A stretch of 64,000 bases of DNA from Chloroflexota bacterium (GTDB lineage: Bacteria > Chloroflexota > Dehalococcoidia > Lucifugimonadales > UBA3495): assembly GCA_009840165.1 (NCBI GenBank), contig VXOG01000098.1:124001-188000 (forward strand), given 5' to 3'. The notes below the pieces were generated by a model, which made no database searches, was not told the DNA's origin, and worked only from the letters and a program-made list of their open reading frames with translations. Positions within the stretch are counted from its first letter, which is position 1, and each line of letters opens with the position of its first letter. The translations under genes were made by a program, and so were the position numbers. This document shows positions 8,313-14,318 of the stretch, piece after piece.

Positions 8313-8768
8313 GGGCGTGTTGACATTTGAATAATGGCCGGATGAGCAGCATGAAACTATTAGCGGTTTCAGCCCCAAATCCACGTGAGAGTGGACGCGC
8401 TGGGCAATCCCTTGCGGTGCATACTGACTGGTGGACAAGAGCATGATATTACCCAGGCCCCTGGTCTGATCGCCGGTTATGAGAGCCAATATGTGATCGC
8501 GGACAAAGGGTATGACGCCCGATCGTTTCGCCAGTCTATTCTGGAACGTAGTATGACCCCAGTCATTCCGCCTCGCTCCAACCGGAAAGCGCCTCACGAA
8601 TATGACGTCCATCTATACCGAGAACGACATCTGGCGGAGTGTTTTATCAACAAGATGAAGCAGTATCGCCGGGTCTTCTCCCGGTTTGAGAAACTGGACG
8701 CCAGATACTTGGCCTTCCTCAACTTCGCCGGCACCCTCATCTGACTCCGGTGAAATGTCAACACACCC
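8313..8768 (+). mobile_element. IS5-type insertion sequence with internal deletion
   Basis: The ends form an inverted repeat: GGGCGTGTTGACATTT at 8313-8328 and its complement, with one C/T change, at 8753-8768. CT at the left and AG at the right may extend this to a CTAG-like target. Between them is only the C-terminal part of a DDE transposase. At about 456 bp the element is roughly half the size expected for an IS5-type element, and the 5' half of the transposase, including the first catalytic Asp, is missing. It cannot move by itself. Confidence 0.8.
8385..8744 (+). pseudogene. IS5-family transposase, C-terminal remnant
   Basis: 119 codons beginning inside the original gene. YVIADKGYDARSFRQSILER holds the second catalytic Asp of the DDE triad. 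HLAECFINKMKQYRRVFSRF holds the conserved Glu and the tail typical of IS5/IS1031-type transposases. The first DDE Asp and the DNA-binding N terminus are absent. No start codon with a ribosome site fits, so it is unlikely to be translated as a useful product. Confidence 0.85.
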
Positions 8769-8811
8769 TAGATTGATGCGCCCACATGGGCATCTTGAAA
8801 AGGAGGCAACC

Positions 8812-9993
8812 ATGAACCCACTCAACATCGGCCCCAACGTCTTGTCGTGGCTCCCCGCCGAGCAAATCGAGGACTCGGCGATGCAGCAGATTGAGAACCT
8901 GTCGCGGATGCCTTTCATCTTCAAGCACGTCGCCGTCATGCCCGACTGCCATTTCGGCATGGGCGCAACCGTTGGATCCGTAATTCCCACCAACCGCGCC
9001 ATCATCCCCGCCGCCGTCGGCGTGGACATCGGCTGTGGCATGATCGCCGTCAAGACGCCGCTCACCCGCGATGACCTGCCCGAAGACCTTTCCGACATCC
9101 GCAAGGCCATCGAGCACCAGGTTCCCCTGAGCGCAGGTCACTACAACCGCAGCGTCAAGAAGACCGCCAAGCCGCGCATCGAGCAGCTTGAAGCCAAGGC
9201 CGCTGAACTCGACCGGCTGGACTTCTACGACAAGCTGGACAAGAACTGGCGCAAACAACTCGGCTCCCTGGGTTCGGGCAACCACTTCATTGAGGTAGTG
9301 CTCGACGAGGAGGGCTACGCCTGGGCGTTCCTGCATTCCGGTTCCAGGGGCGTAGGCAACCGCATTGCTACCAACCATATCAAAATCGCCAAGGCGCTGA
9401 TGGAGAAGTGGTATATCGACCTGCCCGACGCCGACCTAGCCTACCTGGTTGAGGATACGCCGGAATTCGACGACTACATGAAAGACCTCGATTGGGCCCA
9501 GGAGTTCGCCTTGCTAAACCGGGAGGAGATGATGGACCGCATCATCCGGCTGCTCCAGTATCGCTGCGGCGACTTTGAGCCGGTTGAAACCATCCAGTGC
9601 CATCACAACTTCACCCAGCGCGAGCATCACTTCGGCAAGAATATCCTGGTGTCCCGCAAGGGGGCCATCGAAGCGCGGGAAGGGCAGCTGGGCCTGATCC
9701 CCGGCTCCATGGGCACCCGCAGCTACGTGGTGCGCGGCAAGGGCAACGCGGCATCGTTCAACACCGCTCCCCATGGCGCGGGCCGCCGCCTCAGCCGCAA
9801 CAAGGCCCGCAACAACTTCACCATGGAGGACTTCGACCGGGACATGGCGGGCATTGAGGTCAACCGCTCTGAGGCGTTCCTGGACGAGTTGCCCGGCGCC
9901 TACAAGGACATTGACCTGGTGATGGAACAGTCCGCCGGCCTGGTGGAAGTCCTCCACACCTTCCGGCAGATCGTGAACGTCAAGGGCGCGTAG
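8812..9993 (+). CDS. rtcB: RtcB-family RNA ligase
   Basis: 393 aa. RtcB joins 2',3'-cyclic phosphate or 3'-phosphate RNA ends to 5'-hydroxyl ends using GTP and Mn2+. Seen motifs: MPDCHFGMGATVGSVIPT, DIGCGM with metal ligand Cys75, LGSLGSGNHFIEV, LHSGSRGVGN, QCHHNFTQREHHFG, and NTAPHGAGRRLSR, where His321 should be the GMP-accepting histidine. The length matches the short bacterial form. The ATG is set by AAAGGAGG 6 nt upstream; the frame extends further 5' into the IS element but without family resemblance. A strong hairpin plus T-run follows the gene. Confidence 0.95.
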   Translation: MNPLNIGPNVLSWLPAEQIEDSAMQQIENLSRMPFIFKHVAVMPDCHFGMGATVGSVIPTNRAIIPAAVGVDIGCGMIAVKTPLTRDDLPEDLSDIRKAIEHQVPLSAGHYNRSVKKTAKPRIEQLEAKAAELDRLDFYDKLDKNWRKQLGSLGSGNHFIEVVLDEEGYAWAFLHSGSRGVGNRIATNHIKIAKALMEKWYIDLPDADLAYLVEDTPEFDDYMKDLDWAQEFALLNREEMMDRIIRLLQYRCGDFEPVETIQCHHNFTQREHHFGKNILVSRKGAIEAREGQLGLIPGSMGTRSYVVRGKGNAASFNTAPHGAGRRLSRNKARNNFTMEDFDRDMAGIEVNRSEAFLDELPGAYKDIDLVMEQSAGLVEVLHTFRQIVNVKGA

Positions 9994-12126: not shown

Positions 12127-12552
12127 TCACGCGCCGATACGTGTTCCGTCGGGGTATGTGTAGCCTACCCGGTCGCTGTACCCACCGGCGGCGGGGAAAA
12201 TCTGTCGGTACAGGCCGCGCGCCCGGTTCTTGACCACCGCGCCGGCGGCGTCCTTGGTGGGCGTCGGCTTGGCGTTCTGGTCTTTGTAGAACTGGGATTG
12301 CAGAGGGCTGTCGTCCTCCATCTCCCAGATGCAGAGGTAGCGCATGACGTTGTTGGCTTGCCCGTCCTCCGGGTCCAGCATAAAACGACGCGCGCTGATG
12401 TAGCCGGGGATCGACATACGCTCCGGCAGATGCTCCTCGTTGTACCACTTGTTGAACACCGCGTCGTCCGCCTCGTCCACCTCCATCATCACCACCAACA
12501 CCGTGGTGCCAACCTTTTGATCGCTGATTTTACTGCCATTCCTGCTGGTCAT
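12127..12552 (-). CDS. Small ferredoxin-fold (DUF4286/EthD-like) protein
   Basis: 141 aa. TTVLVVMMEVDEADDAVFNKWYNEEHLPERMSIPGYISARRF is the pattern of dimeric alpha/beta-barrel proteins of the DUF4286/EthD type, where a beta strand is followed by WYxxEHLPxR and GxxxxRR. Such proteins can be small degradative enzymes or stability partners; no reaction can be assigned. It converges tail to tail with the MmgE/PrpD gene (stop codons adjacent). AGGAGAG lies 5 nt before the ATG. Confidence 0.75.
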   Translation of the reverse strand: MTSRNGSKISDQKVGTTVLVVMMEVDEADDAVFNKWYNEEHLPERMSIPGYISARRFMLDPEDGQANNVMRYLCIWEMEDDSPLQSQFYKDQNAKPTPTKDAAGAVVKNRARGLYRQIFPAAGGYSDRVGYTYPDGTRIGA

Positions 12553-12570: not shown

Positions 12571-12963
12571 CTAACCGTCTTGGAGTTCAGAAATACTAAC
12601 CTCGCCGCCGTGCTTGAAATCCACCGACAGGTTGTTTCCCCAGAGGAGACCAATGCCGACCAAGGGAAACACCTCGGAAGCCAGGACATTGATAGTTCGT
12701 TGATTTCCTTGCCACCAAATCGTCGCTTCGTACAGGTCGAATCGGGTCAACACGCCGTCACCGATTCTGAAGTTGGTGCTGCCGATGAACGGAAGCCGCA
12801 ATTGTGTAATCGCCGCAGTCGGCAACGTCAAATTGCCGGTGAAACCAGTGTCCAGATGCGCTTCAATTGATTGTTCCCGGCCTTCTCGGTCTATAAGCGC
12901 AATGTTGATTTCCGGCCGGTGCAGCAAGTTGACTGCCCCGACGGTCATGCTGACTCCGCTCAT
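12571..12963 (-). CDS. Clan AA (retropepsin-like) aspartic protease
   Basis: 130 aa, single-lobe size. EAHLDTGFTGNLTLPTAAI carries the DTG catalytic motif in the form D-T-G-F-T-G seen in bacterial clan AA proteases; LVGIGLLWGNNLSVD is the second conserved strand. Single-lobe enzymes work as dimers. Its ATG overlaps the stop of the upstream 85-aa gene by 4 nt (ATGA), so translation is coupled. I recall this pairing of a small acidic protein with a single-lobe protease as recurrent in Chloroflexota and Cyanobacteria, which suggests a two-component module. Confidence 0.85.
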   Translation of the reverse strand: MSGVSMTVGAVNLLHRPEINIALIDREGREQSIEAHLDTGFTGNLTLPTAAITQLRLPFIGSTNFRIGDGVLTRFDLYEATIWWQGNQRTINVLASEVFPLVGIGLLWGNNLSVDFKHGGEVSISELQDG

Positions 12964-13217
12964 GGGCTCAACGACTCGAACGCCGCCGGAAAACCGACCT
13001 TGAATATGTACACGTCGGCATCGGTTATCCTCATCCGGAGTTGCCCCGCCGCCTTGTGTAGCACCTCATCCAACTCCCAATCCATGCTATCGTGATCGAC
13101 GGCCAGGAAATAGCCAATCGGTTCCTCGGCACCTTTCAATGTCGGGCGCACCTTTTCCTGGTACACCATCCTGCCGACTTCCTCGGCTTCTTCGGGGCTC
13201 ATGTCCCGCCATCCCAT
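12960..13217 (-). CDS. Small protein paired with clan AA aspartic protease
   Basis: 85 aa, MGWRDMSPEEAEEVGRMVYQ to the C-terminal FKVGFPAAFESLSP. The layout (helix, then GYFLAVDHDSMDWELDEV, then a strand DADVYIFKVG) matches small partners commonly encoded just before clan AA proteases. No catalytic motif is seen. The ATG has AGGAGG 6 nt upstream. It overlaps the protease gene by 4 nt. A regulator, substrate or antitoxin-like role is inference. Confidence 0.75.
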   Translation of the reverse strand: MGWRDMSPEEAEEVGRMVYQEKVRPTLKGAEEPIGYFLAVDHDSMDWELDEVLHKAAGQLRMRITDADVYIFKVGFPAAFESLSP

Positions 13218-13264
13218 CTCGACCTCCTGCTGGTGGTTATATCCCGAGGAACTTGCGGGCATTA

Positions 13265-14251
13265 TCACAGCCGCCGGTAGATCTGCACGCGGTGGCGGTA
13301 GCAGTCGGCCACGAACACCAAGCCGTCGTCGCTGGCGGTGACCGCTGAGGGCCGGTAGAACCGCCGCTTCAGCTCGATGTTCTGCGTCGCGGCGTTCAGC
13401 TTTTCCTCGATGTCCGGGTTGGCGTCCAGGAAAGTCCGCGCCCACTTGGACGTGCCAGAATGTCCGATGAGGGTGTCGATGACATGGCCGCTTTCGTCGA
13501 GCACCTGCACCCGGTCGTTCAACCAGTCGCACACGTAGATGCGGCCATCGTTGTCCACCGTCAAGCCGTTGGGACGCGAAAAACCGTTGCCGCCGTCCCT
13601 GCCGTCAAAGGTGGCGATGAATCTGCCGTCGGCGTCGAACTTCTGCACCCGGTCATTCCGCCAGTCGGTAACATACACATGATTTGTTCCGTCAACGGCA
13701 ACGCCCCAAGGCATCCTGAACTGACCCGCCCCCTCGCCTTCAGATCCCCAACCTGTCAAAAACTCGCCGTCCGTCGTGAAACGCTGCACCCGGTGATTCA
13801 ACGAGTCCACCACCAGCAGCGACCCATCCGGCGCAAACGCCATTCCCGACGGACCGTTCAGCTGCCCCGGCTCCGAGCCCGGTTCGCCCCAACAGCGCAG
13901 GAACTCCCCTTCGGGAGTGAACACACTCACCCGGTGGGTGTTCTCGTCAGACAGGTACACCATCCCGTCCGGCCCGAAACGGATTTCGGTTATCCATATG
14001 AATTGACCCGGCGCTTCACCCCAATCGGAAAATTCTCCCACGTAGTCGCCGTCAAAGGTGCATCGCGTAACTCGCACTCCCTCCGGCTGGTTTGGGTTGG
14101 CTCGGCTCCCTACGTACAGCAGGCCGTCCGGCCCGACCGCCAGGGAAATCGGCCCGCTGAATCCCGGCCCGCTTCCGGACAACAATCCAATCACATTGTG
14201 GTACTGGTACATCCCCGCCACCGACAGCGGGTATTCAACAACCGTGGTCAT
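13265..14251 (-). CDS. NHL-repeat beta-propeller protein (cassette 2)
   Basis: 328 aa, about six NHL repeats (for example GMVYLSDENTHRVSVFTPEG, GSLLVVDSLNHRVQRFTTDG, NHVYVTDWRNDRVQKFDADG, GRIYVCDWLNDRVQVLDESG). It parallels the cassette-1 NHL protein along its length, including the insertion before the last repeat (SKWARTFLDANPDIEEKLNA). No signal peptide. The chosen start MTTVVEYPLS has GAGG upstream and is matched by the remnant copy at 15.6 kb, which starts MTRVVEYPPS. A dispersed repeat lies just upstream. Confidence 0.93.
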   Translation of the reverse strand: MTTVVEYPLSVAGMYQYHNVIGLLSGSGPGFSGPISLAVGPDGLLYVGSRANPNQPEGVRVTRCTFDGDYVGEFSDWGEAPGQFIWITEIRFGPDGMVYLSDENTHRVSVFTPEGEFLRCWGEPGSEPGQLNGPSGMAFAPDGSLLVVDSLNHRVQRFTTDGEFLTGWGSEGEGAGQFRMPWGVAVDGTNHVYVTDWRNDRVQKFDADGRFIATFDGRDGGNGFSRPNGLTVDNDGRIYVCDWLNDRVQVLDESGHVIDTLIGHSGTSKWARTFLDANPDIEEKLNAATQNIELKRRFYRPSAVTASDDGLVFVADCYRHRVQIYRRL

Positions 14252-14270
14252 CGTAACCTCATCAACTTTT

Positions 14271-14312
14271 ACTCCCTCTCCCCTCTGTGGGAGAGAGTTG
14301 GGGTGAGGGGGC
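14271..14312 (+). repeat. Dispersed CTCTCCC...GGGAGAG repeat, copy 1
   Basis: An inverted repeat of CTCTCCC and GGGAGAG followed by TTGGGGTGAGGG. The same arrangement recurs at 20673-20710 (minus) and, inside a coding region, at 41351-41388. Confidence 0.8.
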
Positions 14313-14318
14313 AACCCC

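What the first reader, a model, noticed from the sequence alone, without database searches (positions are those of the whole stretch)
12571..13217. Two-gene unit: 85-aa protein plus single-lobe aspartic protease
The genes overlap by 4 nt. Soluble single-lobe DTG proteases in bacteria lack known roles, and small partners of this kind often stand before them. The set-up resembles a toxin-antitoxin or protease-inhibitor pair.
Basis: partly seen in the sequence, partly recalled or inferred. Interest (0 to 1): 0.5.

Follow-up and report, generated by a model that had tools for sequence, protein, structure and literature searches.

The report
Protease cassette with dedicated small partner
Two small neighbouring genes, one for a cutting enzyme of the HIV-protease type and one for an unnamed partner protein, travel together as a movable unit in bacteria and look like a poison-and-antidote pair.

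Summary
The window holds an intact retropepsin-type protease (P0001, DTG motif) preceded by an 85-aa protein (P0002) of a family with no match in Pfam, NCBIfam, PADLOC or PHROGs. The 4-nt overlap depends on which protease start is used here, but is exact in 73 of 78 relatives. Pairing is nearly obligatory: 78 of 79 protease loci from named genomes have the partner directly upstream (the 79th is cut by a contig end), as do 118 of 120 protease hits in 40 related genomes; 135 of 144 partner hits have a protease hit downstream. DTGA/DTGS-type proteases of related genomes lack it (28 of 28 clean loci). The pair behaves as a dispensable cassette: 2-20 partner hits per genome in one genus; at the window's site present in 6 of 14 congeners (three tandem pairs in one), absent in 7, unresolved in 1; no fixed neighbours; also on cyanobacterial plasmids, once inside a BREX cluster. 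Decay is one-sided: 24 units keep the partner but have lost or disabled the protease; at most 3 show the reverse. Best reading: a toxin-antidote module with an aspartic protease as toxin. Toxicity and binding are untested. My listed literature searches found no description.

The parts
12960..13217 (-). partner gene, 85 aa (P0002), predicted alpha-beta-beta-alpha-beta domain; residues 81-85 low confidence
   Evidence: no hit in Pfam, NCBIfam, PADLOC, PHROGs
12571..12963 (-). single-lobe retropepsin-like aspartic protease, 130 aa (P0001); family start more likely at 12948 (125 aa)
   Evidence: (TIGR03698 44.5 bits, below its cut-off of 57.35)
12960..12963 (-). ATGA stop/start overlap if the first protease ATG is used
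12954..12957 (-). GGAG, Shine-Dalgarno-like, ahead of the second protease ATG (12948)
   Evidence: direct reading
13223..13228 (-). AGGAGG, Shine-Dalgarno-like, ahead of the partner ATG
   Evidence: direct reading
13265..14314 (-). upstream flank: NHL-repeat protein, stop 47 nt before the partner ATG; with the downstream flank it defines the site that is empty in 7 of 14 congeners
12127..12552 (-). downstream flank: 141-aa protein, one match in each of 14 genomes of the genus, no Pfam hit

Best explanation
A mobile toxin-antidote module (working like a type II toxin-antitoxin pair). The second gene encodes a cytoplasmic retropepsin-type aspartic protease, expected to be active as a homodimer and harmful to the cell when free. 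The first gene encodes its dedicated small partner, made just before it by translational coupling, which binds the protease and keeps it off. Loss of the cassette, or loss of the partner, would free the protease; loss of the protease is harmless, so orphan partners remain. Shown: adjacency, co-inheritance, cassette-like presence/absence, protease fold (predicted) and motif, one-sided decay. Inferred: dimerisation, toxicity, direct inhibition, benefit to the host (addiction or phage defence).
For: Pairing 78 of 79, 118 of 120 and 135 of 144. Separate tblastn searches with a partner and with a protease each hit 8 plasmid records, 7 shared, at neighbouring places; the eighth protease record has a partner-family gene annotated next to it. 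The 4-nt overlap is kept across phyla. Distance matrices of 175 intact pairs correlate r 0.83, 500 shuffles at most 0.11. At the window's site the pair is present in 6 of 14 congeners (three tandem pairs in G006) and absent in 7, where the two flanking genes are adjacent. 2-20 partner hits per genome in the genus. 124 of 128 mechanically chosen neighbour ORFs gave 65 Pfam families, none in more than 3 members. Plasmid copies lie inside a BREX cluster and beside a ParDE-type pair. Decay 24 to 3, binomial 6e-4 against gene length, 19 to 3 and 5e-3 without the five motif-only losses; three more broken proteases with intact partner frames among the named loci, one on a plasmid. Protease model: Rickettsia retropepsin Z 13.0, rmsd 2.9, 119 aligned.
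Against: No toxicity or binding data. No DNA-binding domain was recognised in the partner, unlike most type II antitoxins (recalled). At the window's site the pair starts 47 nt behind the NHL gene and may share its transcript, so no self-regulation is evident. Loss of the first of two coupled genes could silence the second, which may bias the decay count. The count rests on my manual classes, on draft genomes, and on related genomes that are not independent. The protease is the faster-changing member at the site (54% against 87% identity between G000 and G009), odd for a toxin with a conserved target. No PADLOC family matched and most recognised neighbours are ordinary enzymes.
Confidence: 0.55

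Rival explanations
1. A protease-inhibitor (or protease-chaperone) pair with an ordinary regulatory job: the partner tames or folds the protease, but the pair is neither toxic nor addictive; it cuts a specific target under some condition.
For: Obligatory pairing and co-inheritance fit any dedicated complex; a known bacterial relative, RimB, binds and regulates a partner enzyme (PMC12239564, passages read).
Against: A regulatory pair would be expected at steadier copy number and with lasting neighbours; here partner hits vary tenfold within one genus, the site is empty in 7 of 14 and neighbours differ. A dedicated chaperone should not outlive its protease, yet partners without a working protease are common.
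Confidence: 0.22
2. The partner is the substrate: the protease cuts it to release an active fragment, which is the effector; the pair is a switch rather than a poison and antidote.
For: The partner's last residues are predicted flexible, and four of the ten strongest inter-protein couplings in a shallow analysis join partner residues 56, 66 and 80 to protease residues 32-40 around the DTG (weak).
Against: One-sided survival of the partner would then leave an effector that cannot be released; no constant third gene that could use the product.
Confidence: 0.1
3. A phage-defence (abortive infection) cassette, in which the partner senses infection and releases the protease.
For: Position inside a BREX cluster on a Nostoc plasmid, patchy distribution, fast-changing protease.
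Against: No PADLOC family; one clear defence-cluster example among the plasmid records opened; most recognised neighbours of the named loci are ordinary enzymes. Overlaps with the best explanation rather than excluding it.
Confidence: 0.1
4. Chance neighbours or a spurious ORF.
For: The window gives many overlapping mechanical ORFs.
Against: 78 of 79 and 118 of 120 pairings; dN/dS under 0.5 in 19 of 21 close partner pairs and 17 of 20 protease pairs.
Confidence: 0.01

Closest known systems
TIGR03698 clan AA aspartic protease (DTGF type)
   Same: P0001 aligns over residues 19-119 with E 1.5e-11; relatives on plasmids carry this name
   Different: P0001 scores below the curated cut-off; 21 of the 30 loci returned for this family in related genomes are other types without the partner
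Rickettsia APRc, retropepsin-like protease (PDB 5c9b/5c9d/5c9f)
   Same: single-lobe retropepsin fold, Z 13.0, rmsd 2.9 over 119 residues
   Different: 14% identity; the Rickettsia enzyme is a membrane-linked protein with no such partner (recalled)
RimB / RloA of Pseudomonas
   Same: small bacterial clan AA proteases encoded next to functional partners (PMC12239564, passages)
   Different: partners are ATP-grasp proteins and, for RloA, a transglutaminase-like membrane protein; RloA is secreted; not a movable two-gene cassette
Type II toxin-antitoxin systems
   Same: two small coupled genes, presumed antidote gene first, many dispersed copies, plasmid carriage, orphan antidotes
   Different: no known toxin or antitoxin family recognised; the 2009 survey (PMC2701414, passages found) discusses a zinc protease, COG2856, and the term search found no aspartic protease in it

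Membership tests
Clan AA, retropepsin-like aspartic protease | catalytic D-T/S-G motif | tested here: met
   DTG at P0001 residues 38-40, invariant in 34 of 34 aligned rows; five relatives without it were met later
Clan AA, retropepsin-like aspartic protease | retropepsin fold of one lobe | tested here: met
   model pLDDT 93; best matches are retropepsins, Z 13.0, rmsd 2.9, 119 aligned
Clan AA, retropepsin-like aspartic protease | activity as a homodimer | not testable with these tools
   inferred from the single lobe and from strands near both ends
TIGR03698 (NCBIfam) | score above the curated cut-off of 57.35 bits | tested here: not met
   44.5 bits
Type II toxin-antitoxin system | two small adjacent, usually overlapping genes inherited together | tested here: met
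Type II toxin-antitoxin system | patchy, mobile, multi-copy distribution | tested here: met
Type II toxin-antitoxin system | toxin gene rarely intact without antitoxin gene | tested here: met
   at most 3 such cases against 24 of the reverse
Type II toxin-antitoxin system | toxicity of the toxin alone and neutralisation by the antitoxin | not testable with these tools
   needs expression experiments
Type II toxin-antitoxin system | DNA-binding, self-regulating antitoxin (most families) | tested here: inconclusive
   no recognised domain by profile and no convincing fold match, which does not exclude one
Known defence or toxin-antitoxin families in PADLOC | match to a model | tested here: not met
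   no match up to E 1 for P0001 and P0002

The most novel reading that the evidence does not exclude
This is the first family of toxin-antitoxin modules whose toxin is a retropepsin-type aspartic protease, held in check by a new small protein that blocks dimerisation or the active cleft; it has spread through Chloroflexota, cyanobacterial plasmids and other lineages, reaches ten or more partner hits per genome in 7 of 14 genomes of one genus, and may guard plasmids or kill phage-infected cells.
Probability: 0.45. Interest if true: 0.8.

Novelty: new variant of a known kind. Interest (0 to 1): 0.6.

Why it matters
Single-lobe aspartic proteases are numerous in these bacteria and mostly unexplained. 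A strict genetic partner, kept across phyla, turns one whole subfamily into a directly testable problem: co-purify, assay, and express with and without the partner. If the protease is a toxin, it adds a new enzyme class to toxin-antitoxin biology and would offer a natural protein inhibitor of an HIV-protease-like fold.

Tried and rejected
Family libraries gave no relative of the partner: no match at all for P0002, and for four other members one insignificant Pfam match below its cut-off. The PDB sequence search gave three insignificant hits for the partner profile (best E 0.16) and none for the protease profile. Foldseek and VIA gave nothing convincing for the partner model: best E 0.75 and Z 2.6 against the PDB, E 0.1 against viral models. 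A DUF5678 protein stands there at rank 30 (TM 0.45), too weak to use. No partner-protease fusion was found in the loci held at that time, up to L157. The viral-contig scan gave one distant protease without partner. The phage collection gave one partner hit at E 0.7.

Covariation between the two proteins ranks inter-protein pairs high, four of the top ten at protease residues 32-40, but with an effective depth of 130 and shared ancestry this is a hint only. In one search minus-strand loci were read in the wrong orientation; they were redone. The decay script flagged 21 proteases as broken. After reading the flagged ones I counted 13 with frameshift, stop or deletion (L143, L149-L152, L154-L157, L176, L195, L261, L271) and 5 with the DTG motif changed (L215, L217, L226, L227, L252; L227 also lacks its N-terminal part), set aside 2 contig edges (L202, L233) and moved 1 to intact (L223). 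Of 8 without protease, 6 were counted (L140-L142, L144, L145, L147) and 2 set aside as tandem partners in front of another pair (L146, L257). In the other direction I counted L138, L139 and L248 and set aside L208 (contig edge). The 102 units called intact by the script were not read one by one.

Literature: searches, seen as listings. Opened by term search: PMC12239564, PMC2642776, PMC2701414, PMC3482391 (first 300,000 characters), PMC9561280, PMC4963859, PMC12654330. None of the passages shown describes this pair; the Synechocystis and marine toxin-antitoxin papers hold none of the words aspartyl, aspartic, COG5550, retropepsin, peptidase. Coverage is open-licence PubMed Central only, without supplements.

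Full report
What is there. On the minus strand of the window lie two small ORFs: 12960-13217, 85 aa (P0002), and 12571-12963, 130 aa (P0001) with HLDTGFTG. The first protease ATG overlaps the partner's stop as ATGA. A second ATG at 12948 is preceded by GGAG and matches the start of the family, so in this copy the true arrangement may be an 11-nt gap. P0001 matches TIGR03698 at 44.5 bits, under the curated cut-off. P0002 matches nothing in Pfam, NCBIfam, PADLOC or PHROGs.

Structure. The protease model (36 sequences, pLDDT 93.0) is a retropepsin lobe: Rickettsia retropepsin Z 13.0, rmsd 2.9, 119 aligned; XMRV and EIAV proteases follow. The partner model (56 sequences, pLDDT 83.5) has helix 8-26, strands 37-41 and 47-50, helix 53-63, strand 69-73, then a tail of falling confidence; no solved structure among those compared resembles it convincingly.

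Pairing. A scan of named genomes with a protease alignment confirmed 248 relatives and kept the best 80, giving 79 loci. 78 of 79 carry the partner directly upstream; L126 has only 74 nt before the protease. In 73 of 78 the stop and start overlap by exactly 4 nt; L063, L069, L079, L105 and L130 do not. In 40 related genomes, protease hits of 50 bits or more number 120, of which 118 have a partner hit within 400 nt upstream. Partner hits number 144, of which 135 have a protease hit, whole or fragment, within 400 nt downstream; the protease list of that call was cut at its weak end. Other clan AA proteases serve as a control: of 38 loci show a partner, 9 of them DTGF/DTGY types and one (L001) a DTGA protease whose stretch also holds a separate pair; the other 28, all DTGA or DTGS by reading, have none. 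On cyanobacterial plasmids, separate tblastn searches with a partner and with a protease each hit 8 records, 7 shared, at neighbouring places. The record found by protease alone has a partner-family gene annotated beside it. The record found by partner alone, Oscillatoria pOSCIL6304.01, keeps the partner and a protease cut off at the DTG region.

Spread. The named loci are mostly assemblies labelled Chloroflexi, Chloroflexota or Dehalococcoidia, with others labelled Acidimicrobiia, Gammaproteobacteria, Deltaproteobacteria, Acidobacteria, Pirellulaceae and Latescibacterota. Binning errors could inflate that list; the Nostocales plasmids are complete records. Equal contig length and position suggest that congener G004 is the record JAPPMU010000049, a Chloroflexota assembly, so the window is probably Chloroflexota (inference).

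A movable cassette. The 141-aa gene downstream of the pair has one match in each of 14 genomes of the genus. A pair stands directly upstream of it in six: between it and the NHL gene in G000, G002, G005, G008 and G009, and as three tandem pairs in G006, where the NHL gene lay beyond the stretch read. In seven the two genes are adjacent with no pair (G001, G004, G007, G010, G011, G012, G013). In G003 neither the pair nor the NHL gene was in the flank read. Between G000 and G002, G009 or G005 the flanks are 95-96% (141-aa gene) and 84-89% (NHL) identical, partners 54-87% and proteases 50-54%. Synonymous distances are 0.48-0.93 for the flanks, 1.5-1.7 for the protease, and saturated for the partner except 0.80 with G009. 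That fits replacement or exchange among copies, though the genes are short. Partner hits per genome in the genus run from 2 to 20. Of 128 neighbour ORFs chosen mechanically beside the named pairs, 124 were scanned: 65 Pfam families, none in more than three members. A Nostoc plasmid copy lies between pglZ and pglX of a BREX cluster and a Trichormus copy beside a ParDE-type pair.

One-sided decay. I fetched all 144 partner places, classified them by script and read the flagged ones. They are 131 units, 13 hits being the first half of a double partner. Thirteen proteases are broken by stop, frameshift or deletion, five more have lost the DTG motif, and six partners have no protease at all: 24 units with a whole partner frame and without working protease. 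The reverse is seen at most three times: L138 (intact protease, no partner), L139 (a weak, divergent protease), L248 (partner without a usual start codon). Against a null set by gene length (123 to 88 codons) the binomial probability is 6e-4; without the five motif-only losses it is 19 to 3 and 5e-3. Named loci add L076, L078 and L081 with broken protease and whole partner frame. The genomes are related and drafts, so this is evidence, not proof. It says that a working protease without its partner is rarely kept.

Other anatomy. Thirteen partner ORFs carry two partner domains in tandem, twelve of them before a protease (working or broken) and one, L145, alone. In six genomes a partner domain ends a 388-438-aa frame; the three I scanned (L020, L038, L152) carry a PEP-mutase domain in front. 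Two domains per partner chain would suit a dimeric target; that is inference. Distance matrices of 175 intact pairs correlate at r 0.83 (shuffles at most 0.11), so pairs are mostly inherited together.

Mechanism. The most economical reading is toxin and antidote: coupled translation puts the partner first, the partner binds the protease, and the protease harms the cell when free. Shown: pairing, overlap in the family, cassette behaviour, predicted fold, catalytic motif, one-sided decay. Inferred: dimer, toxicity, inhibition, benefit. Rivals are a non-toxic protease-inhibitor pair, a substrate switch, and a phage-defence cassette, the last compatible with the main reading.

Known or new. The 2009 survey of type II systems discusses a zinc protease family; a term search found neither COG5550 nor retropepsin in it (PMC2701414, passages). 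The polymorphic toxin survey holds none of five terms in the text held (PMC3482391). Two toxin-antitoxin papers, on Synechocystis and on marine bacteria, hold none of five such terms (PMC4963859, PMC12654330). Single-domain prokaryotic clan AA peptidases are described as little known (PMC2642776, passages). Searches joining aspartic protease or retropepsin terms with antitoxin terms returned no paper or listings in which no title pointed to this pair; the one phrase match, 'toxin is a protease' in PMC9561280, is part of 'protease-dependent process'. The protease family is known; the partner family, the strict pairing and the cassette behaviour appear undescribed within those searches.

Noticed in passing
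L020, L038, L152; also frames at G005:C112, G009:C75, G013:C144: A diverged partner domain sits at the C-terminus of a PEP-mutase-type enzyme ahead of the protease; Pfam checked in three of six such frames.
   Followed up: partly
L145, L151, L156, L175, L188, L196, L197, L207, L217, L218, L222, L232, L234: Partner ORFs with two tandem partner domains, twelve of thirteen before a single protease.
   Followed up: partly
L008 (own genome C77:50110-50367): A different single-lobe protease (DTGATDTLLHP) is preceded by another small ORF without Pfam match over its cut-off, perhaps a parallel pair.
   Followed up: no
window 8385-8744 and 8686-9993, + strand: Part of a DDE transposase whose frame overlaps the long form of an RtcB ORF, perhaps an insertion remnant.
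   Followed up: no
G004 and relatives, loci L022-L051: Related genomes carry many solo DTGA/DTGS-type proteases, up to 43 TIGR03698 hits per genome in all, an unexplained expansion.
   Followed up: no
L158, L162, L165: Among the five genomes compared at the syntenic site, the window's partner is closest to that of G009 (87%) but its protease to that of G008 (62%), suggesting exchange between the two genes.
   Followed up: partly
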